Below the pieces are notes generated by a model. That model was not told the origin of the DNA. It ran no database searches and saw only the letters and a list, made by a program, of their open reading frames with translations. A program made the position numbers and the translations under genes. From positions 1-45,872 of the forward strand of contig JAMPGV010000014.1 of the NCBI GenBank assembly GCA_023663735.1: DNA of 45,872 bases, written 5' to 3'. Positions 4,863 through 14,155 of the stretch are shown here, in pieces; positions within the stretch are counted from its first letter, which is position 1; every line of letters begins with the position of its first letter. This stretch comes from Muribaculum sp. Its GTDB lineage: Bacteria > Bacillota > Clostridia > Lachnospirales > Lachnospiraceae.

Positions 4863-4920
4863 GGCAGCACCTTGCATTTTGTTTGTTGTCTTATCTTATG
4901 CGCCGTCCGGCAAAGCGTTA

Positions 4921-5010
4921 CGGAAAGATTTCCGAGAAATCTTTCCGGGAAAAATTTTCCGCTGCGGGAAGATCCGCCGCGGATTTTTTTCGCCGCGAAA
5001 AACTTTCGCG
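4921..5010. other. Cluster of hairpins in the divergent intergenic region
   Basis: Four inverted repeats follow one another: CGGAAAGATTT/AAATCTTTCCG (4921-4931 with 4937-4947), GGAAAA/TTTTCC within 4947-4960, ATCCGC/GCGGAT (4972-4984) followed by seven T residues, and CGCGAAA/TTTCGCG (4994-5010). They lie between the divergent starts at 4862 (minus) and 5102 (plus), upstream of the plus-strand promoter. They could act as terminators of stray transcripts or as leader structure of the minus-strand gene. Confidence 0.5.
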
Positions 5011-5027
5011 TTATTTCCAGAAAATGC

Positions 5028-5057
5028 TTGACGGGGGGGTAATTCATGGTGTATCAT
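5028..5057 (+). promoter_or_regulatory. Promoter of the GntR/ABC operon
   Basis: TTGACG at 5028-5033 and TATCAT at 5052-5057 are separated by 18 bp, 45 nt before the regulator's start codon. This is a reasonable sigma-A type promoter. The -10 box touches an inverted repeat that may be the operator. Confidence 0.6.
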
Positions 5058-5079
5058 TGTATTATGAAGTTGGTACAAT
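5056..5079. promoter_or_regulatory. Candidate GntR/YtrA-type operator
   Basis: ATTGTA (5056-5061) and TACAAT (5074-5079) form an inverted repeat with 12 bp between the arms. It overlaps the -10 box and the probable transcription start of an operon whose first gene is a GntR-family repressor. Autoregulation by binding here is an inference from position and symmetry. Confidence 0.45.
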
Positions 5080-5101
5080 AATACAGAAAGGATGTGAGTG
5101 G

Positions 5102-5458
5102 ATGGCATGGAAACTGGATTCTGACAGGCCGATCTATATACAGCTTGTGGAGCGTATCCAGACGCAGATCGTCTCCGGATACTATCCCGGCGGAGCCAAA
5201 CTGCCCAGCGTCAGGGAACTTGCCGCGGTGGCCGCGGTCAATCCCAACACGATGCAGAAGGCGTTTGCGGAGCTGGAGCGGAGCGGCCTGATCGTGACGC
5301 AGCGCACCAACGGCAGGAGCGTGACGGACGACGGCGCATTGATTGACAGAGTACGCCATGATATGGCAAAATCTCATATGGAGACTTTTGTCATGCAAAT
5401 GAAAGAATTGGGATACACGAAAGAGCAGGTGTTTGCTTTTTTGGAAGAAAATCTCTGA
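5102..5458 (+). CDS. GntR-family (YtrA subfamily) transcriptional regulator
   Basis: A 118-residue protein. Residues 1-75 form the winged helix of GntR regulators: RPIYIQLVERIQTQIVSG, then LPSVRELA and NPNTMQKAFAELERSGL, then a wing around TQRTNGRSVT. Only a short helical tail follows (about 40 residues), which defines the YtrA subfamily, where the tail serves for dimerisation. Such genes usually sit before ABC transporter genes and repress their own operon; the two genes downstream fit exactly. I chose the ATG at 5102 because AAAGGATG lies 7 nt upstream; longer in-frame versions run through the promoter region. An inverted repeat at 5056-5079 is the likely target. Confidence 0.88.
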   Translation: MAWKLDSDRPIYIQLVERIQTQIVSGYYPGGAKLPSVRELAAVAAVNPNTMQKAFAELERSGLIVTQRTNGRSVTDDGALIDRVRHDMAKSHMETFVMQMKELGYTKEQVFAFLEENL

Positions 5459-5482
5459 TAAGCAGAGGGAAAGAGGGAGTGT

Positions 5483-6220
5483 ATGAGCGAGTATATGCAG
5501 GCGGAGACCGGGCGCAATCCGTACAATCTGGTGGAGTTTAACGGCGTCACCAAGTCCTACGATATGCAGCGCGCCGCGGTGGACAATGTGAACCTGATCC
5601 TGCCCCGAGGCAAGATCATCGGGCTGTTAGGGCCGAACGGCAGCGGCAAGACGACGCTGATCAAAATGATCAACGGTCTTTTGACGCCTACTGCCGGGAG
5701 TATTCTGATCAACGGGAAGCCCGTTGGGCCGGAGTCCAAGGCGCGTGTGGCCTATCTGCCCGACAGAACCTATCTGACCGGAAACAGGACGATCACACAG
5801 ATCTTAGATTATTTCTGCGATTTTTATGAGGATTTTAACCGCGGGAAGGCGGTGGGAATGCTGGAGAACCTGAACATCGAACCTTCTGCGAGAATGAACA
5901 GCCTCTCCAAGGGAACCAAGGAGAAGGTGCAGCTGATTCTGGTGATGAGCCGCAATGCGGATCTGTATGTGCTGGACGAGCCGATCGCGGGCGTGGATCC
6001 CGCGGCCAGAGATTATATTCTGCGCACGATTATCAACAACTATAATCCGGAGGCCACCGTGCTGATCTCCACCCATCTGATCAGCGATATCGAGCAGGTT
6101 TTGGACGAGGTGGTTTTCATGCGCTATGGGAAGCTGGTACTCTATACTTCCGTAGACAATATCCGGGAGGAGAAGGGGAAGTCCGTGGACGCATATTTCA
6201 GGGAGGTGTTCGCATGTTAG
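5483..6220 (+). CDS. ABC transporter ATP-binding protein
   Basis: A 245-residue ABC ATPase. The Walker A motif GPNGSGKTT is near residue 50, the signature is the variant LSKGTKEK near 140, Walker B is LYVLDEPIAGVD near 160, and the H-loop is STH near 190. The form is that of a stand-alone nucleotide-binding subunit energising a separate membrane protein, here the product of the next gene, whose start overlaps this one. The start at 5483 has the strong site GAGGGAGTG upstream. By analogy with ytr-like operons the transporter may respond to cell-wall stress or peptide antibiotics, but no substrate can be read from the sequence. Confidence 0.9.
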   Translation: MSEYMQAETGRNPYNLVEFNGVTKSYDMQRAAVDNVNLILPRGKIIGLLGPNGSGKTTLIKMINGLLTPTAGSILINGKPVGPESKARVAYLPDRTYLTGNRTITQILDYFCDFYEDFNRGKAVGMLENLNIEPSARMNSLSKGTKEKVQLILVMSRNADLYVLDEPIAGVDPAARDYILRTIINNYNPEATVLISTHLISDIEQVLDEVVFMRYGKLVLYTSVDNIREEKGKSVDAYFREVFAC

Positions 6221-7080
6221 GGAAAATCATCAAATATGAGTGGAAAAGCACCTATAAACTTTGTGGGATGATGATTCTGGCCATCGCCGGAGTCACCCTG
6301 CTGGGCGTGCTGGGATTTATTCTGCCCTTCCGGCTGCTGATGGAGGATTCCAGTGCGTTTTCCGATTCCATGACGGGGGCGGTATGGACGATGATCATGG
6401 TGATGAGCCTGATGATCTATATCGTTATGCTGGTGGGCGTGTCCTACGGCATGATGATTTATCAGGGCGTACATTTTTATAAGACGATGTATTCCGACGA
6501 GGGATATCTGACCCAGACCCTGCCCGTGACGCCGAGACAGCTTCTGGTGGGCAAGACGTTTATGGCGGGAATCTGGCAGCTGCTGGTCGGTGTGAGCGTG
6601 ATGCTGTCCGTTTTCATCCTGATCGCCGCCATGTTCATGTCCCTGCTGGACGGAAGCGTCTGGCGGGAACTGGCTGAGATGCAGGATGAAATGCAAGATG
6701 CAATACAGGAACTGTACCCGGATATAGGGTTTCAGATCATCCACACCGGCTTGTCGTTTATTCTGGCGGTGCTGATCGCGCCGTTCAGCTCCATGCTGGT
6801 GTTGTTCGGCGCCCTCACCATCGGGCAGCTCTCCCGCAAATATAAGGCTCTGATGGGAATTTTGGCCTATTTTGGAGCCATGGCGGTCAACATGGTGGTG
6901 AACTACATTGTGCAGTTTATCTTGGCCTTTCGGGAGATTTTGTTCCATCTGGACAATCCGACGGGCATGAACGATCTGGCGAGCAATTATGACGGGACGC
7001 TGATCGTAAGTTTGATTATGGGCGTGGGCATGTACTTGATCGCGCACCACATTCTGACCAAGAAGCTCAATATGGATTAA
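6214..7080 (+). CDS. ABC transporter permease (YtrC/ABC-2 like membrane protein)
   Basis: A 288-residue protein with about six hydrophobic segments: an N-terminal one near residues 17-37, a pair around 50-85, one near 115-145, and two to three from 175 to the C-terminus. A charged, methionine-rich loop around 150-165 (EMQDEMQDAIQELYP) probably faces one side of the membrane. It overlaps the ATPase gene by 7 nt, so translation is probably coupled and the two form one transporter. There is no substrate-binding protein, which suits an exporter or a sensing/defence transporter rather than an importer. No family-specific motif can be named beyond the general ABC-2 type layout. Confidence 0.82.
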   Translation: MLGKIIKYEWKSTYKLCGMMILAIAGVTLLGVLGFILPFRLLMEDSSAFSDSMTGAVWTMIMVMSLMIYIVMLVGVSYGMMIYQGVHFYKTMYSDEGYLTQTLPVTPRQLLVGKTFMAGIWQLLVGVSVMLSVFILIAAMFMSLLDGSVWRELAEMQDEMQDAIQELYPDIGFQIIHTGLSFILAVLIAPFSSMLVLFGALTIGQLSRKYKALMGILAYFGAMAVNMVVNYIVQFILAFREILFHLDNPTGMNDLASNYDGTLIVSLIMGVGMYLIAHHILTKKLNMD

Positions 7081-7085
7081 GTTGT

Positions 7086-7121
7086 TGAAAAGCATTTGCC
7101 ATTTGCTGAAAAGCATTTGCC
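7086..7121. repeat. Direct repeat with 21-bp period upstream of the cassette
   Basis: A 15-bp sequence, TGAAAAGCATTTGCC, occurs at 7086-7100 and again at 7107-7121. The spacing of 21 bp is two helical turns, so both copies face the same side of the DNA. The second copy runs into the -35 box of the predicted promoter, as a regulator binding site would. Confidence 0.6.
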
Positions 7122-7145
7122 CTCCGGCGTGATTTTTGGTATACT
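7117..7145 (+). promoter_or_regulatory. Promoter of the four-gene cassette
   Basis: TTGCCC (7117-7122) and TATACT (7140-7145) are separated by exactly 17 bp, about 30 nt before the first start codon. The -35 box is the end of a direct repeat. The following genes are closely spaced without an obvious terminator, so this promoter could serve all four. Confidence 0.6.
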
Positions 7146-7175: not shown

Positions 7176-10100
7176 ATGGCAATGCAGGGAATCGTAGACG
7201 GGATTTTAGAGGGAAAATATGATTATGAGAACGGCTCTCTCGACTTTTCATGCACAAAGCTGGAGCTTACTATGTGCAAAGGGGAAGTACAGGAGGGCTG
7301 TTTTCATGTCTATTCCTCGGGAGACGGTTTCACGCAGGGCTATGTCATCACCACGGATATGCGGATGGAATGCCTGACGCCGCAGTTTGCGGGCAGCGGG
7401 GAGGAGATTTTCTATCGGTTCCACGGGGAGCATCTGGAAGAGGGCGATGTGGTAAAAGGGAATTTCTGCATAATCAGCAATCAGGGAGAGTATTATCTGC
7501 CCTTTGTGGTCACGGTGGAGCATCAGACGCCCGCCTCGTCTATCGGGAACGTGAAAAATCTGTTTCATTTTGCCAATCTGGCCAAGAGCAGCTGGCGCGA
7601 GGCGGTGGAACTCTTCTATTCGCCCGCCTTCGAGAAAGTATTTCAGGGGAGCGACAGGCAGTTTTACGATTGTTACAGAGGGCTGAGCGCCTGTCCCGGG
7701 AACGAGCAGAACATGGAGGAATTTCTCGTCCGCATCAACAAGAAACAGAAAGTGGAGTTTCTGGTGCGGGAGAGCGAAATCCGCGAGGAGCTTGCGGAGG
7801 CGGCCTATGGCGTGACGGAGGTTGAGCTGAATATTCTGCGGAACGGGTGGGGATATACCGGACTGCAGGTGGAGTGTGAAGGAGAGTTTGTCTTCACGGA
7901 GAAAGAATTTTTGAGCGACGATGATTTTCTGGGAAACCGCTGTATTCTTCCTGTGTTTATCGACACGCAGATGTGCCGCGGCGGCAGGAATTTCGGGCGG
8001 GTCTATCTGTATAATTCCCATACCTCCGTCACCATACCGGTGACGGTCAAGCGTGGCGGCGCGTGGGAGAGGGGCCGCGGGTATCTGGAGAGAAAACGGG
8101 AGATCGTGCGGCTGATGGAGCTGTATCAGGATTTCCGCCTGCGCAGAATCAGTCCTGTCTCCTGGCAGGAGGAGACGGGGGCTTTGGTGGAAGCGATGGC
8201 GGAGCGGGAGGACGGCAGCGTGGCGGCGCGGCTGTTTCAGGCGCAGCTTTTGGTTTCCGCGGAGCGCTATAACGAGGCGGACTGGATTTTGAATCAGGTG
8301 CAGGAGCGGGCGGAGGCGTCGGACGATACGCTGTATGCGTATTATCTCTATCTGACGACCTTGATTCACGGGGAGGAGTCCTATGTGGACGAGGCTGCCG
8401 CCAGAGTGGAACAGCTGTATGGCCGCGACCGCGGGAACTGGCGGATTGCATGGCTGCTCTTATATCTTTCGGAGAAATACAACAAGACGGCTGCGGCCAA
8501 ATGGGATTTTCTGGAGAAACAGTTCCGGCGCGGCTGCAGCAGCCCGGTACTCTATATCGAAGGTCTGCATCTGTTGAATGCGAATGAGACGCTTCTGCGC
8601 AAATTGGACGACTACGCTCTGCATGTGCTGTATTACGGCGCGAAAAAGGACAGCCTAAGCCCGGACGTGCTGGAACAGCTGCTCTATCTGGCGGGCAGGG
8701 GACGGGAGTATTCCGTGCTTTTGCTGAAACTGCTGCAGACGGTCTACAAGAGGAATCAGGATGTGCGGATTCTGCAGGAAATCTGTGCGCTTCTGGTGCG
8801 CGGCGGCTGTGTAGGACGGCGCTTTTTCACATGGTATGAGGCGGGCGTGGCGGCACAGCTGCGCATCACGAACCTGTATGAATACTATATGATGTCTCTG
8901 GATCTGCAGACGGCTCAGGAACTGCCCCGGATAGTGCTGATGTATTTTTCGTATCAGAGCAATCTGGATCTGGCGCACAGCGCTTTCCTGTACTGGTACG
9001 TGGTGCGGCACAAGGAGGAGCTGGGCGAACTCTATGAGAATTATCGGCCGCGCATGGAACATTTTGTGGTGGATCAGATTCTGAAAGAGCGCATCAACAG
9101 GCATCTGGCGGGACTGTATCAGGAACTGCTGGTTCCGGCCATGATTGACGAGCAGACCGCCGGACCGCTGTCCAGACTGCTGATGGCGCATCAGATCGTG
9201 GTGGAGGATCTTAGGCTGAAGAAGGTGATCGTCTACCAGCCCGGCAGCCTGTGCGAGAATGTGTATCCGCTGCAGGACGGCTGCGTCTGGGTGCCGCTTT
9301 ACGGCAACGATTCCACCGTTCTTTTTGAGGACGCCTATGGCAACCGCTTTGTAAAAGACGTGGAATATACGATGGAAAAGCTGATGCGTCCCGGCAAGTA
9401 CCTGCGGATGATCTCAGGGCTGGTGGCGGATTCGTTGGAACTGGATCTGTATTTGATGGATCGGGAGACGGATCTGTCTTCCGCGGAAGTCTGGGAGCGG
9501 ACGATCCGCCTGTCGCGGGACGAGCGGGTGGAGCCGCAGATCCGCAGGACGCTGTATCTGCGGCTTCTGGAACATTATTACGAGACAGACAATATGCGGG
9601 CGCTGGACGAGTGCCTTGAGGCGGTTCCCGTTGAATTGTTCACGCTCTCCGAGCGGGCGGAAGTGCTTCACTATATGGTTCTGCGCGGCAGGAACGAGGA
9701 GGCGTGGGGCTGGATTCTGGAATTCGGACCTTCTTTCGTGGAGCAGAAGACGCTGATGCGTCTGGTCAGCGAGCAGATTCTGGAGACGGACGGCAGAGAG
9801 GACGCACAGCTTGCGGAGGCCGCCCTGTATGCGTTCCGGCAGGGCAAGTACGACAGCCGCATGGTGCAGTATCTGGCGGAATATGCCCAAGGATCCACCA
9901 GAGATCTGCGGGATATTTGGAAGGCGGCGCGCTCTTTTGAGGTGGACGCCTACCGGCTCAGCGAGCGGATGCTGCTGCAAATGCTCTTCTCGGGCGCTTT
10001 CGTGGGGGAGAAGACGGAGATTTTTGAATATTATGTGTCCCGAGGAGCCAATGTCCGCATCGAGAAAGCCTTTCTGGCGCGCTGCGCCTATGGCTATCTG

Positions 10101-10748
10101 GTGCGGGAGAGGCTCACGGAGGCAGTCTTTTTCAAAGAGATCCGCCGATTATATCTACAGCAGGAAGAGATCCAGAAGGTATGCAAGCTGGCATTTTTGA
10201 AATACTATGCGGAGAATGCGGGGGAGCTGGCGGCGGAGGAGACGCCGGTTGTCAAGGCGTTTCTGCAGGAGATGCTGACGGAGAAAATTCATCTGAATTT
10301 CTTTAGGCGGTTTGCGGAGCGGAAGCTGATTTCGGAGAATATGCTTAGGGAGATGTTAGACAAAACGATTGTGGAATATCGGACACGCCCCGGGGCGAAG
10401 GTCTCCATCCATTATGTGGTTATGCGCGAGGACGGGGAGGCTTCGGAATATCTGACGGAGCCGATGCGGGAAGTCACGGGGGGATTGTGTTTTAAAGAAT
10501 TCGTGCTGTTTTTCGGAGAGAGTCTCCAATACTATATCACGGAGGAGCGGGACGGCGAGGAACAGCTCACCGAGAGCGGTAACCTGCAGAGAAGCGATAT
10601 CCGGGGGAACGATGCGGACTGGCGTTACGAGATGCTCAACGACATTTTGATCAGCCGGACGCTGGAGGATTACGATACGCTGGATGAATTGATGGAAGAG
10701 TACCGCCGCAGGGAATATCTGGGCGAGCATCTTTTTGCATTGCAGTAA
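7176..10748 (+). CDS. Large beta/helical-repeat protein, DUF5717-like
   Basis: A 1190-residue protein with no signal peptide and no membrane segment. Residues about 10-115 and 205-290 read as two beta-sandwich modules (alternating hydrophobic strands; LPFVVTV and TIPVTVKRG close each module), similar in character to Ig-like domains. Residues about 300-680 and 770-1080 are amphipathic helices in pairs, like TPR or HEAT-type repeats. A small beta module (VIVYQPGSLCENVYPL) lies between them, and a beta segment lies near 1070-1130. From memory it matches the Clostridia family DUF5717, function unknown. It begins a tight cluster with an Hsp70-like protein 13 nt downstream. A role as a large scaffold or client-binding protein for that partner is inference. 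The ATG at 7176 was taken because GGACGGGTG precedes it. Confidence 0.75.
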   Translation: MAMQGIVDGILEGKYDYENGSLDFSCTKLELTMCKGEVQEGCFHVYSSGDGFTQGYVITTDMRMECLTPQFAGSGEEIFYRFHGEHLEEGDVVKGNFCIISNQGEYYLPFVVTVEHQTPASSIGNVKNLFHFANLAKSSWREAVELFYSPAFEKVFQGSDRQFYDCYRGLSACPGNEQNMEEFLVRINKKQKVEFLVRESEIREELAEAAYGVTEVELNILRNGWGYTGLQVECEGEFVFTEKEFLSDDDFLGNRCILPVFIDTQMCRGGRNFGRVYLYNSHTSVTIPVTVKRGGAWERGRGYLERKREIVRLMELYQDFRLRRISPVSWQEETGALVEAMAEREDGSVAARLFQAQLLVSAERYNEADWILNQVQERAEASDDTLYAYYLYLTTLIHGEESYVDEAAARVEQLYGRDRGNWRIAWLLLYLSEKYNKTAAAKWDFLEKQFRRGCSSPVLYIEGLHLLNANETLLRKLDDYALHVLYYGAKKDSLSPDVLEQLLYLAGRGREYSVLLLKLLQTVYKRNQDVRILQEICALLVRGGCVGRRFFTWYEAGVAAQLRITNLYEYYMMSLDLQTAQELPRIVLMYFSYQSNLDLAHSAFLYWYVVRHKEELGELYENYRPRMEHFVVDQILKERINRHLAGLYQELLVPAMIDEQTAGPLSRLLMAHQIVVEDLRLKKVIVYQPGSLCENVYPLQDGCVWVPLYGNDSTVLFEDAYGNRFVKDVEYTMEKLMRPGKYLRMISGLVADSLELDLYLMDRETDLSSAEVWERTIRLSRDERVEPQIRRTLYLRLLEHYYETDNMRALDECLEAVPVELFTLSERAEVLHYMVLRGRNEEAWGWILEFGPSFVEQKTLMRLVSEQILETDGREDAQLAEAALYAFRQGKYDSRMVQYLAEYAQGSTRDLRDIWKAARSFEVDAYRLSERMLLQMLFSGAFVGEKTEIFEYYVSRGANVRIEKAFLARCAYGYLVRERLTEAVFFKEIRRLYLQQEEIQKVCKLAFLKYYAENAGELAAEETPVVKAFLQEMLTEKIHLNFFRRFAERKLISENMLREMLDKTIVEYRTRPGAKVSIHYVVMREDGEASEYLTEPMREVTGGLCFKEFVLFFGESLQYYITEERDGEEQLTESGNLQRSDIRGNDADWRYEMLNDILISRTLEDYDTLDELMEEYRRREYLGEHLFALQ

Positions 10749-10761
10749 GGGAGGTTGAACC

Positions 10762-12039
10762 ATGGGGTTTTTGCATCATGGGAAATTGATCGTGGGCTAT
10801 GATCTGGGCGAGCGCTATGCGCAGGTCAGTTACCGTCTCGGCGAGGATGAGGTGGAGACGTTGTCCGCCGTGGCGGGGGAAGAGCGCTATAATATTCCTG
10901 TGGCGCTCTGCAAGCGCACGGGGGTCAATCAGTGGTTTTACGGCAGGGAGGCGCTCCGCTGCGCGCAGGAGGAGCAGGGGATTCTGGTGGCGGATATTGT
11001 GCGGCTTGCCGTCGCGGGCGAACCGGTGCAGGTGGACGGGGTTGTATTTGATCCGGTGGCGCTTCTGGCGCTCTTTATGAAGCGCAGTCTGGGTGTGCTG
11101 TCTCAGGTCTCGTCGCCGGATAAGCTGGCCGCGATGACGATTACCTGCGGGCGTCTGGACGCCAGAATGATCGAGGTACTCGGCCGCGCGGTGGAAAATA
11201 TGCATCTGAAAACCGACAAGATTTTTTTTCAGAGCCATGCGGAGAGCTTTTATCATTACGTGATCCGGCAGCCGGAGGAACTATGGCGCTCACAGGCGCT
11301 TTTGCTCGAATACGCGGAGACTAAGGTCAAGGCATACTGCATGGACTGCAACCGGCGGACCACGCCCATGGTGTCGTTTATCGAGGAGTGGGAGTATGAT
11401 ATGCCGCCCTATGAGCCGATGCCGGAGGAAGCGGAGGCCAGAAGGGACAAAATGGAACAGCTGGACCGGGAGTTTGAGCAGATCGCGTCTCAGGTCTGCA
11501 CCAAGACGGCGGTCTCCTCGGTGTATCTGATTGGCGAGGAGTATTCCGAGGAATGGATGAAGGAATCGCTCCGCACGCTCTGCAAAGGGCGGCGTGTGTT
11601 TCAGGGCAATAATCTTTACAGCAAGGGCGCGTGTTATGCCATGGCGGAGCGGCTCTCGCCCAGCGAAGTGGGGAAATCTCATATTTTTCTGGGAGAGGAT
11701 AAACTCAAGTCCAATATCGGGATGAATATTCTGAACCGGGGACAGGAAGTCTATTATGCGCTGCTGGACGCGGGCGTCAACTGGTATGAGGCCAAGCATC
11801 GGTTTGAGTTCTACATTCGCGGCGGCAGCGAGTTGGAGCTGCAGATCATATCCCTGATCGGCGGAGAGCGCCGGACGGAGCGGATCACCTTGGAGGATCT
11901 GCTGCCGGGGATGAGCAGGATGCGGGCAAAGCTGTTTCTGGAGGGCGAGAAATCGCTGGTGGTGGAGATCGAGGATCTGGGGTTCGGGAATTTCCGACCC
12001 GCCACGAATCAGGTGTGGCGCAGGCAGATACAACTGTGA
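10762..12039 (+). CDS. Divergent Hsp70/actin-fold protein, DUF5716-like
   Basis: A 425-residue protein. The N-terminus has an actin-fold phosphate-1 strand pair (LIVGYDLGERYAQVSY), and the region AAMTITCGRLDARMIEVLGRA matches the part of Hsp70 proteins just before the second half of the nucleotide domain. Where Hsp70 has a DLGGGT phosphate-2 loop, this protein has LLLEYAETKVKAY, and the adenosine loop is the weak VYLIGEEYSEEW. The last 150 residues are beta-rich, ending in WRRQIQL. ATP binding is therefore plausible and hydrolysis doubtful. I recall the family as DUF5716. The start has GGGAGG 7 nt upstream. Its place between a giant repeat protein and a helical protein suggests a complex; no function has been shown to my knowledge. 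Confidence 0.72.
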   Translation: MGFLHHGKLIVGYDLGERYAQVSYRLGEDEVETLSAVAGEERYNIPVALCKRTGVNQWFYGREALRCAQEEQGILVADIVRLAVAGEPVQVDGVVFDPVALLALFMKRSLGVLSQVSSPDKLAAMTITCGRLDARMIEVLGRAVENMHLKTDKIFFQSHAESFYHYVIRQPEELWRSQALLLEYAETKVKAYCMDCNRRTTPMVSFIEEWEYDMPPYEPMPEEAEARRDKMEQLDREFEQIASQVCTKTAVSSVYLIGEEYSEEWMKESLRTLCKGRRVFQGNNLYSKGACYAMAERLSPSEVGKSHIFLGEDKLKSNIGMNILNRGQEVYYALLDAGVNWYEAKHRFEFYIRGGSELELQIISLIGGERRTERITLEDLLPGMSRMRAKLFLEGEKSLVVEIEDLGFGNFRPATNQVWRRQIQL

Positions 12040-12072
12040 GAAATGCAAAAGGACATTACGGGGAGAGATAAA

Positions 12073-12927
12073 ATGCGGGTCAGTTTATGCGTAGGAGAAT
12101 ATGCGGCGGCGCCATATTATATTGCGGGGCTGGAAGTGCCTGTCTGTTCCATGGAGGAACTTTCCTTCTGTCTGCGGGAAAACGCGTTTTTGCTGGACAT
12201 GACGTTAATGCGGGATGAGCTGGCGGAATGGATTGAAAGAGAGTGCGGTCTTAGCCAGCTTGCGGGGCAGCTGCATGATTTGATTCACAAACAGGGATCG
12301 CTCAGCGCCTTTGTGGCGGCGATTTTGAATTACACGGGATTCTATGACGCCGCGGAGATCGGCGAGGTGGAGCAGGTACTCAGACAGGGTGCGGGGCTGT
12401 CGAGCATCGAGAGGCGCAAGGGGCAGCTGGACTATCTGGTGCGCAAGAAGAAATTTACGGCGGCTCTCAGGGGCTATGACAGTCTTCTGGCGAAGTGGAG
12501 CGAGATGGAGCTTGCGGGCGGGGAACTTCCCGCGGCGAAGGTAAAGGCCGCCATCCTGCACAACAAAGGAGTGGCGATGGTCGGCATGATGCTCTACGGC
12601 TCCGCGGCGGCGTGTTTTCAAGAGGCCTACGAGACGGATGGGGAACTGCCCCATTACCGGGCGTATCTCGCGGCGAAGCGCATGGAGCTGGATGAGAGCG
12701 CGTATATCTCGTTTGCCGCGGAGCAGACGATCGGATATGAACATACGCTGGAACTGGAGAAACGGATGGAGCGGCTGACGGAGGACTGGCGGCTGCAGCC
12801 GGAATTTCAGGAACTGCTGACGATCCGAGAGTGCCGCGCGGGCGGGGACAGGCGGCGCTATTATGAAGGGATCGAGGAAGTGATCAGGACTTTGAAGAGC
12901 GGTTACCGCAGCAGCGTGGGCGAATAA
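12073..12927 (+). CDS. Helical (TPR-like) protein of the Hsp70-like cassette
   Basis: A 284-residue soluble protein, third in the cassette. It is almost wholly helical after a short beta start (MRVSLCVGEYAAAPYYI). Residues about 120-215 contain helix pairs of TPR character (FTAALRGYDSLLAKW, KAAILHNKGVAMVGMMLYGSAAACFQEAY), where the small-residue pattern of a TPR is visible. I chose the ATG at 12073, with GGGGAGAG 5 nt upstream, over the in-frame ATG at 12043, which follows the previous stop by 3 nt and has no ribosome-binding site. I do not recognise a named family. Adjacency to an Hsp70-like protein suggests a co-chaperone or adaptor; this is inference. Confidence 0.72.
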   Translation: MRVSLCVGEYAAAPYYIAGLEVPVCSMEELSFCLRENAFLLDMTLMRDELAEWIERECGLSQLAGQLHDLIHKQGSLSAFVAAILNYTGFYDAAEIGEVEQVLRQGAGLSSIERRKGQLDYLVRKKKFTAALRGYDSLLAKWSEMELAGGELPAAKVKAAILHNKGVAMVGMMLYGSAAACFQEAYETDGELPHYRAYLAAKRMELDESAYISFAAEQTIGYEHTLELEKRMERLTEDWRLQPEFQELLTIRECRAGGDRRRYYEGIEEVIRTLKSGYRSSVGE

Positions 12928-12979
12928 AGGACACAGGCGGCGCGTTCTCCATAAGGAACGGCAGCATGGGGGTATCGGT

Positions 12980-14155
12980 ATGGGATTTTGGAAAAAATTA
13001 TTCCGCTTCGGAGCCGGGCGGAATCAGGAGCAGCAGGAATCTGACTGGGAGGAGATCGTCTACGATCACACGGAGGTGGATTTCCACGATGAGGAACAGC
13101 GGAGCAGATATGTCACGAACTGTCTGGAACAGATTGCGGAGGCGGTCAAGGAGATCGGCTATCTAAACGGCGAGTACGGGCTTGTGACCGCCTATCTGAC
13201 GGATATGGAGGAGATCGAGGCGCTGCCGGAGGAACCCAGACAGGAGCTGAATCAGGTGGCGGGCAGGCTGATGGCGCTGGAGCAGGAGCGGCAGCAGTAT
13301 CTCGGCAGGAAGGATCGGATGCGCGACAGCGACTATTTCCGGATGCGCAAGCAGGAGAGCGAGGTAGAAGAGGGGATCGACAAGCTGAAGGAAGCCGAGA
13401 GGTACAACAAATTGGTGCGGTCGGATCTGCAGCGTCTGGACAGGGAGAGACATGCCTACGATTACAGGCGGACGGAGCTTTTCACGATGCAGGACAATCT
13501 CCGGGGAATGGCGGTGATCTTTATCTGCGCGCTGGCGGCCTGTCTGCTGATGCTGGCGGCTCTGCAGTTTGTGTTTGAGATGAATACTTATGTGGGCTAT
13601 TTTATCGCGGTGCTGGCGGCGGCGGTGGCCGTCACGGTGGTGTGCGTGAAATACATCGACGCCGACAAGGAGATCGGGGCGGTGGAGCGGGCCATCAGCA
13701 GGCTGATCCAGCTGCAGAACAAGGTCAAGATCCGGTATGTGAACAATGAGAAGCTTCTGGAATATCTCTGCATCAAATATGAGACCAAGAGCGCGGCCGA
13801 GCTGGAGAAATGCTGGAAGAGCTATCAGGAGGAGAAGGAGGAGCGCAAGCAGTTTGCGGAGGCGGAAGCCAAGACGGACTATTACCAGAAGGAGCTGACA
13901 AGGCAGCTTGCACAGTTTCGGGTCAGCGATCCCGACCGCTGGATCAATCAGGTACACGCGCTTCTGGATCCGCGGGAGATGGTGGAGATACGTCATGAAC
14001 TGATTGTGCGCAGACAGGCGCTCAGGCAGCAGCTCGACTATAACAACGGCGTGGCGCAGACCGCCCGCGACGAGATCATGAGCGTGGCGCGGGAGTATCC
14101 GCAGTACGGCATGGAGATCATGAACATGGTGGAGCGGTATGACAAAAATGTATAA
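12980..14155 (+). CDS. Coiled-coil membrane protein of the Hsp70-like cassette
   Basis: A 391-residue protein, fourth in the cassette. Residues 1-20 are basic and amphipathic (MGFWKKLFRFGAGRNQEQQ). Residues about 35-170 form a long charged coiled coil. Two adjacent transmembrane helices lie at about 178-196 and 204-222 with a very short loop. Residues about 235-385 form a second coiled coil, so both coils face the same, probably cytoplasmic, side. This hairpin-in-membrane design would fix the soluble partners of the cassette to the membrane. The ATG at 12980 has only a weak GGGGGT upstream; some dependence on the upstream gene is possible. I do not recognise a named family. Confidence 0.75.
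   Translation: MGFWKKLFRFGAGRNQEQQESDWEEIVYDHTEVDFHDEEQRSRYVTNCLEQIAEAVKEIGYLNGEYGLVTAYLTDMEEIEALPEEPRQELNQVAGRLMALEQERQQYLGRKDRMRDSDYFRMRKQESEVEEGIDKLKEAERYNKLVRSDLQRLDRERHAYDYRRTELFTMQDNLRGMAVIFICALAACLLMLAALQFVFEMNTYVGYFIAVLAAAVAVTVVCVKYIDADKEIGAVERAISRLIQLQNKVKIRYVNNEKLLEYLCIKYETKSAAELEKCWKSYQEEKEERKQFAEAEAKTDYYQKELTRQLAQFRVSDPDRWINQVHALLDPREMVEIRHELIVRRQALRQQLDYNNGVAQTARDEIMSVAREYPQYGMEIMNMVERYDKNV

What the first reader, a model, noticed from the sequence alone, without database searches (positions are those of the whole stretch)
7176..14155. Uncharacterised four-gene cassette: giant beta/helical scaffold, Hsp70-like protein, TPR-like protein and membrane coiled coil
Four genes in a row under one promoter, with gaps of 13, 33 and 52 nt, combine parts that look made for one another. 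They are a 1190-residue protein of beta sandwiches and helical repeats, an Hsp70/actin-fold protein, a helical adaptor, and a two-helix membrane hairpin with coiled coils on the same side. I know the first two only as domains of unknown function (DUF5717, DUF5716). A membrane-tethered chaperone-like or cytoskeletal complex is a reasonable hypothesis. This is the strongest candidate in the window for an undescribed system.
Basis: partly seen in the sequence, partly recalled or inferred. Interest (0 to 1): 0.85.

Follow-up and report, generated by a model that had tools for sequence, protein, structure and literature searches.

The report
Motorless Hsp70-derived chaperone scaffold operon
Four neighbouring genes in a gut-type bacterium encode what looks like the stripped-down remains of a multi-part protein-folding machine whose energy-using parts were lost, although nearly all sampled relatives in its family still carry it, and no study of it was found.

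Summary
The four genes are real, co-directional and tightly packed. A (DUF5717) is modelled as ASH/PapD-like beta sandwiches plus TPR-like solenoids. B (DUF5716) folds as DnaK (nucleotide-binding domain plus substrate-binding beta domain, no lid) but its ATPase motifs are degenerate. C is a TPR protein; D has a two-helix membrane hairpin. A-B-C are linked in 40 of 40 family genomes examined (B and C fused in one); D is optional (16 of 40). A occurs in 195 of 200 family genomes and, outside the order, in no sampled genome above cut-off.

The main discovery lies outside the window. Other families of the order (Defluviitalea, Vallitaleaceae and others) carry an expanded operon in fixed order: A, Hsp70a, a GrpE-tailed protein, Hsp70b (B's orthologue), Hsp70c, an Hsp70-vWA fusion, C, sometimes D. 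Hsp70a, c and d keep ATPase motifs; Hsp70b does not. Trees place B inside Hsp70b, so the window operon is probably a reduction that lost the three motif-intact Hsp70s and the GrpE-tailed protein yet stayed near-universal. Best reading: a nucleotide-independent, Ssz1-like client-holding scaffold, membrane-tethered where D is present. The biochemistry is inferred, not shown.

The parts
7117..7145 (+). Promoter-like site TTGCCC-17-TATACT with TG before the -10
   Evidence: consensus scan; counterpart upstream of A in 6 of 6 same-genus genomes
7176..10748 (+). Gene A, DUF5717 scaffold, 1190 aa (likely true start 7182, 1188 aa)
7239..7520 (+). A residues 22-115: ASH/PapD-like beta sandwich 1
   Evidence: AlphaFold2 model and VIA-align rows FimC, HYDIN, CEP192, SCS2
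7755..8054 (+). A residues 194-293: beta sandwich 2
8064..9182 (+). A residues 297-669: TPR-like alpha solenoid 1
9186..9380 (+). A residues 671-735: beta domain 3
9393..10358 (+). A residues 740-1061: alpha solenoid 2
10362..10589 (+). A residues 1063-1138: C-terminal beta domain
10762..12039 (+). Gene B, DUF5716, Hsp70-derived protein with degenerate ATPase motifs, 425 aa
10786..11655 (+). B residues 9-298: nucleotide-binding-domain fold with degenerate motifs
11680..12033 (+). B residues 307-424: substrate-binding beta domain; the protein ends here, no lid
12073..12927 (+). Gene C, TPR protein, 284 aa (longest ORF starts at 12043)
12980..14155 (+). Gene D, protein with two hydrophobic helices in its middle and long flanks before and after them, 391 aa; optional member
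13508..13564 (+). D residues 177-195: hydrophobic helix 1
   Evidence: hydropathy
13592..13648 (+). D residues 205-223: hydrophobic helix 2
   Evidence: hydropathy

Best explanation
The operon encodes an Hsp70-derived chaperone scaffold that works without an ATPase of its own. A is the backbone, C the TPR adaptor, B an Ssz1-like Hsp70 that probably cannot hydrolyse ATP but keeps its peptide-binding beta domain, and D, where present, anchors the complex to the membrane. B would hold clients transiently (fast on, fast off, no lid) and A-C would hand them to the housekeeping DnaK or to a membrane-linked client pathway. It arose by loss of Hsp70a, the GrpE-tailed protein, Hsp70c and Hsp70-vWA from the expanded operon still found in sister families, where one degenerate Hsp70 and three with intact ATPase motifs are encoded beside the same scaffold. 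Shown by computation: folds, motif degeneration, linkage, distribution, and nesting of B within Hsp70b. Inferred: the physical complex, client binding, hand-off and membrane anchoring. About 0.9 for the anatomy and descent, about 0.4 for the holdase mechanism; the figure given is for the whole statement.
Against: No binding, expression or phenotype data. No J-domain match in A-D, so no known way to recruit DnaK. Motif loss speaks against hydrolysis, not against nucleotide binding; the first Asp is D or E in 34 of 34. The Glu loss depends on alignment: a Glu lies within six columns in 30 of 34 B proteins and could be a shifted equivalent. Peptide-groove residues of B were not tested. D, the proposed anchor, is missing in 24 of 40 genomes. 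B and C diverge fast (identity to the window 21-43% and 20-33%), which fits a scaffold as well as a chaperone. Trees have long branches, and the clade in the AU test was named after seeing a tree.
Confidence: 0.48

Rival explanations
1. Structural rather than chaperone role: A-B-C(-D) form a static membrane-associated scaffold, with B a dead Hsp70-fold brick used only for protein contacts.
For: ATPase motifs of B are degenerate; A resembles large ASH and TPR scaffolds such as ciliary central-apparatus and IFT-A proteins; D carries two hydrophobic helices.
Against: B keeps a complete substrate-binding beta domain and descends from an operon with a GrpE-tailed protein and three motif-intact Hsp70s, which points to client handling.
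Confidence: 0.25
2. B keeps regulated nucleotide binding and the complex is a co-chaperone of DnaK (as Ssz1 and Hsp110 act with other Hsp70s), for instance doing the job of the lost GrpE-tailed protein.
For: Ssz1 and Sse1 are among the closest structures; the first Asp column is D or E in 34 of 34 and a Glu near the catalytic column is present in 30 of 34.
Against: Thr pair, Lys and phosphate-2 GGGT are absent at their columns in 34 of 34 and part of the NBD is missing; no J-domain match in A-D.
Confidence: 0.12
3. Relict of a conflict (defence) system of the GAP1-N2 type, in which Hsp70, GrpE and an FNIII-TPR protein accompany GTPases.
For: Kaur et al. 2020 describe GAP1-N2 GTPase neighbourhoods in Firmicutes and actinobacteria with HSP70, GrpE, sometimes a second HSP70, and FNIII proteins fused to DnaJ or TPR (PMC7159879, section 29); the expanded operon has a similar parts list.
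Against: No GTPase among A-D or the seven L101 proteins scanned; no PADLOC hit for A-D and for the expanded set only matches up to 39 bits that look like shared Hsp70 or TPR domains; near-universal within one family and trees that fit descent, unlike patchy defence islands.
Confidence: 0.08
4. Sporulation or envelope-development machinery of Clostridia.
For: SpoIVA is present in 31 of the 40 A-B-C holders; a protein with a weak SpoIID match lies nearby in the window.
Against: 9 of 40 A-B-C holders have no SpoIVA match, and G029 and G098 have SpoIVA but no A match.
Confidence: 0.07

Closest known systems
DnaK/GrpE/DnaJ Hsp70 machine
   Same: B has the DnaK fold (NBD plus SBD-beta); the expanded operon has Hsp70s with intact motifs and a GrpE domain
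   Different: B has degenerate ATPase motifs and no lid; no J-domain match in the proteins scanned; giant scaffold A, TPR C and membrane D have no counterpart in DnaK/DnaJ/GrpE (recalled)
Yeast RAC (Ssz1-Zuo1)
   Same: Hsp70 without lid and without hydrolysis, with a beta domain that contacts clients, supported by a partner (PMC7083937 passages; structure rows)
   Different: No Zuo1-like J-domain partner found; bacterial; presumed partners are A, C and D; ribosome link not known
GAP1-N2 GTPase-centric systems with HSP70 and GrpE (Kaur et al. 2020)
   Same: HSP70, GrpE, a second HSP70 and a beta-repeat protein fused to TPR; vWA domains occur in related themes
   Different: No GTPase among the proteins scanned here; near-universal inheritance within a family; four Hsp70s and an Hsp70-vWA fusion in the expanded form
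Pfam DUF5717_N/DUF5717 and DUF5716_C
   Same: A and B are plain members
   Different: These labels carry no function; this work adds fold, order-wide context and descent

Membership tests
Hsp70 (for B) | NBD plus SBD-beta fold | tested here: met
Hsp70 (for B) | ATPase residues (phosphate 1 and 2 loops, Lys and Glu; roles recalled) | tested here: not met
   Lys, Thr pair, GGGT 0 of 34 each; Glu 0 of 34 at its column, but a Glu lies within six columns in 30 of 34
Hsp70 (for B) | SBD-alpha lid | tested here: not met
   B ends at residue 425 directly after the beta domain
Hsp70 (for B) | Match to PF00012 | tested here: not met
   none at E 1 or better for window B; no place on contig 5 among the PF00012 matches of G000; 13 of 19 expanded Hsp70b do match
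Ssz1-type non-hydrolysing Hsp70 | No lid, degenerate NBD, intact SBD-beta | tested here: met
   (prediction, not assay)
Ssz1-type non-hydrolysing Hsp70 | J-domain (Zuo1) partner | tested here: not met
   no DnaJ match in A-D nor in the seven L101 proteins
TPR protein (for C) | TPR repeats | tested here: met
   profile of 32 C proteins matches consensus TPR proteins, E down to 4e-41; C of L101 matches Pfam TPR families; window C alone has no Pfam hit
ASH/PapD-like domain (for A) | PapD/MSP-type beta sandwich | tested here: met
GAP1-N2 GTPase-centric conflict system | GTPase component | tested here: not met
   none among A-D or seven L101 proteins; flanking genes not all scanned
GAP1-N2 GTPase-centric conflict system | FNIII-repeat protein fused to TPR or DnaJ | tested here: inconclusive
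   A is beta-sandwich plus TPR-like; PapD/ASH-type domains are prominent in the list of structural matches
Anti-phage defence (PADLOC) | match to a PADLOC model | tested here: not met
   no hit for A-D at E 1
Sporulation system | confined to spore formers | tested here: not met
   9 of 40 A-B-C holders have no SpoIVA match

The most novel reading that the evidence does not exclude
A new class of Hsp70 machine: an ancestral complex in which one dead and three motif-intact Hsp70s (one fused to a vWA domain) plus a GrpE-tailed exchange factor assemble on an ASH-TPR scaffold, and a motorless descendant that became part of the near-universal gene set of a whole bacterial family, showing that the scaffold and the dead Hsp70, not the ATPases, carry the indispensable function.
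Probability: 0.35. Interest if true: 0.88.

Novelty: new variant of a known kind. Interest (0 to 1): 0.74.

Why it matters
The window's family (199 genera in the draw) is by inference Lachnospiraceae, recalled to be among the commonest bacteria of the mammalian gut; 195 of 200 of its genomes carry this set's marker A, and no functional study was found (searches; open-access library only). If the reading is right, it is a natural experiment on Hsp70: evolution discarded the motif-intact Hsp70s and the GrpE-tailed protein and kept the scaffold with the degenerate Hsp70. The contrast between expanded and reduced operons makes directly testable what a pseudo-Hsp70 is for.

Tried and rejected
Cytoskeletal polymer: no specific support; all 50 structure rows shown for B are Hsp70s or complexes that hold an Hsp70 or Hsp110 (absence of actin or MreB from that list is not proof). 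Defence: PADLOC negative for A-D. Sporulation. D as a SLATT-type pore: no SLATT model in the Pfam scans of window D (E up to 1) or of 17 D proteins (E up to 0.01); 12 other families hit 1 to 3 members weakly, taken as chance helix or membrane matches. A and D gave no PDB sequence match that I count (one at E 2.5; ten, best E 0.067). The A match in G226 (18.7 bits, below cut-off) was not counted; its best B-profile match lies in a 612-aa ORF and covers the N-terminal part only. Weak A8 matches in ORFs of 819-1832 aa (G509, G536, extra hits in G529, G688, G733; G351, G378, G403) and in two Planctomycetia contigs (L194, L195) were set aside as other vWA proteins; L194 and L195 were left out. Paper searches gave nothing relevant in their listings; 'DUF5716' occurs once in an unrelated paper (listing only).

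Selection. Alignments A1, A2, A3 hold 33, 34 and 31 of the 40 loci besides the window. The Hsp70 tree used 22 of 34 B sequences; the AU test 16 of 34 B and 8 of 18 Hsp70c.
Full report
Observation. The four ORFs exist as described. DUF5717_N and DUF5717 cover A nearly end to end and DUF5716_C covers B from residue 125; C has no Pfam or NCBIfam match, D only sub-threshold ones. The gaps of 13, 33 and 52 nt hold with C starting at 12073; the longest ORF starts at 12043, but five of six same-genus orthologues are called at 284 aa, the length from 12073. A promoter-like site at 7117-7145 has a counterpart upstream of A in six of six same-genus genomes. The scan shows no terminator-like match on the + strand between the end of D and purC, so read-through into purC is possible. 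dN/dS is about 0.11-0.16 for A, B, C and D against two same-genus genomes, with purC about 0.05 and the ABC permease about 0.27-0.42 (dS is near saturation).

Where it is found. PF18983 (the C-terminal part of A) is in 195 of 200 genomes of the window's family (161 of 164 of the good ones) and in 0 of 14 control genomes. In a phylum-wide draw of 299 it exceeds cut-off in 4, all of the window's family, own genome included; a fifth match is below cut-off. Of the five family genomes without an A match, G020 has a strong B match; G029 and G098 have only weak matches to the N-terminal part of the B profile; G091 and G128 have none. The family is coded f1, not named. Named holders of the related expanded operon include Defluviitalea phaphyphila, Petrocella, a Vallitaleaceae MAG and MAGs labelled Candidatus Epulonipiscium or Defluviitaleaceae. 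NCBI puts Defluviitalea and Petrocella in Lachnospirales, and contig lengths show that some of these records are the coded genomes of the window's order (for example 262,338 bases for G518:C34 and L118). So f1 is very probably Lachnospiraceae (inference).

In 40 family genomes, A, B and C follow one another on one strand in 40 of 40; median gaps are 15 nt (A-B) and 6 nt (B-C). Wider A-B gaps are L060 (926 nt) and L073 (100 nt), and in L072 B and C form one 709-aa ORF. D follows in 16 of 40 and is not found elsewhere in the other 24 genomes. Other neighbours vary, apart from a gene that I count upstream and antisense in 20 of the 40 rows; the one member scanned is a class I/II aminotransferase. 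Within the genus, ABC ATPase and permease genes lie upstream in six of six (GntR in five), purC or purF downstream in five of six (neither was seen in the 1.7 kb left after D in L201), and D is absent in one (L203).

The expanded operon. A search of 295 genomes of the order with the B profile showed that other families carry tandem Hsp70-like proteins. Of 20 loci fetched from such genomes, 19 have the expanded type and one (L112, from G653) the reduced type. Order: A (split in two, or one gene), Hsp70a of about 557 aa, a protein of 279-644 aa, Hsp70b of 456-542 aa, Hsp70c of about 546 aa, Hsp70d of about 690 aa, C of about 386 aa, and D in 4 of 19. Not all loci show every gene; L104, for example, shows only two, and in G674 Hsp70d lies on another contig. 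In the example L101, Pfam finds HSP70 in a, b, c and d, a VWA domain at the end of d, and GrpE at the end of the unnamed protein. GrpE is found in 18 of 19 of those proteins. DUF5716_C matches 17 of 19 Hsp70b and the Hsp70c of L101. No J-domain match was found in the seven proteins of L101. Among 78 named loci scanned (L116-L193), 26 hold the run from the C-terminal part of A through Hsp70a, GrpE-tailed, b, c and d to C, five of them with D; the others hold parts of the same order, many because the contig or the fetched stretch ends, some because the genes are apart (for example L141 and L193, 20 kb with Hsp70d alone); no other order was seen.

Mutual exclusion. The vWA tail of Hsp70d is found at E 1e-15 or better in 91 of 295 genomes of the order; by my count 89 of these are strong (E at or below 2e-80). 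All 91 are coded to other families; none of the window's family, of which one search lists 48 in a draw of the same size and handles, is among them. In 299 genomes across the phylum only three long proteins match, at E 1e-18 to 5e-17. The GrpE-tailed protein is in 6 of 6 expanded holders tested and 0 of 23 family genomes. Those 23 all have a strong ordinary Hsp70 match.

State of the motor. In a joint alignment of 103 Hsp70-like proteins, Hsp70a (17), c (18) and d (15) keep DLGTT, the Lys, the Glu and DLGGGT in every member scored. Hsp70b has the Lys in 0 of 19 and the Glu in 3 of 19. B has, at the aligned columns, the Lys in 0 of 34, the Glu in 0 of 34, both Thr in 0 of 34 and GGGT in 0 of 34, and the segment around GGD is gapped in 34 of 34. 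Two cautions: a Glu lies within six columns of the Glu site in 30 of 34 B proteins, so that loss rests on the alignment; and a Lys lies within six columns in 19 of 34. What stays conserved is the first Asp or Glu (28 D, 6 E), the Gly of the adenosine motif (33 of 34), and the C-terminal beta domain.

Descent. In the Hsp70 tree (91 rows), B is one clade (99 percent SH-aLRT) whose sister is the Hsp70b of L098 (joint clade 100), and the Hsp70b of L099, L106 and L109 come next (94). Holding Hsp70b as one clade is rejected, p-AU 0.01, though the group was named after seeing the tree. In the A tree, L098 again groups with the family (99) (the root there is only midpoint). So the reduced operon most likely arose once from an expanded one. 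L098 itself looks like a decaying or badly assembled expanded operon: its GrpE-tailed gene is short, and Hsp70d and C are each in two ORFs. Long branches are present, so exact branching should be taken with care.

Mechanism. The closest precedent is Ssz1 of yeast RAC, which lacks the lid, binds but does not hydrolyse ATP, and uses its beta domain for low-affinity contact with nascent chains, stabilised by its partner (PMC7083937, passages). B has no lid and an intact beta domain in the model and degenerate ATPase motifs. I therefore favour a nucleotide-independent client-holding platform of A, B and C, tethered to the membrane where D is present. The B-C fusion and the tight gene linkage support a complex; complex formation, client binding and hand-off are inference.

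Compared with what is known. Kaur et al. 2020 (PMC7159879; passages, section 29) describe GTPase-centred conflict systems, about 14 percent of whose GAP1-N2 type carry HSP70 and GrpE with FNIII-DnaJ or FNIII-TPR proteins. The parts list is similar, but no GTPase was found among the proteins scanned here, and the inheritance is that of a core gene set. No description of the DUF5716/DUF5717 operon or of the four-Hsp70 operon was found in the library searches (listings); subscription papers and preprints are not held there.

Noticed in passing
window 7085-7125: A direct repeat of about 15 nt (TGAAAAGCATTTGCC), its second copy overlapping the -35 region; by eye the upstream stretches of six same-genus genomes show no such second copy.
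   Followed up: partly
L072 8914-11043 (- strand): B and C are one 709-aa open reading frame, a natural fusion or a lost stop.
   Followed up: partly
L098 4207-16928: The sister lineage's expanded operon has a short GrpE-tailed gene, and Hsp70d and C each in two ORFs; decay in progress or assembly errors.
   Followed up: partly
L112 (G653:C40:1-12000): A genome coded to another family carries the reduced A-B-C type on a 15-kb contig; transfer or a misplaced contig.
   Followed up: no
L036 5174-6274, L101 18567-19712: Class I/II aminotransferase genes lie upstream of A on the opposite strand in many loci of both operon types; one protein of each type was scanned.
   Followed up: no
window 4883-7080: GntR-type regulator and ABC ATPase genes (Pfam) and a membrane-protein ORF like a permease directly upstream of A; kept in five (GntR) or six of six same-genus genomes.
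   Followed up: no
L194, L195: Two Planctomycetia contigs encode a vWA domain 35 and 39 percent identical to that of the Hsp70-vWA fusion.
   Followed up: no
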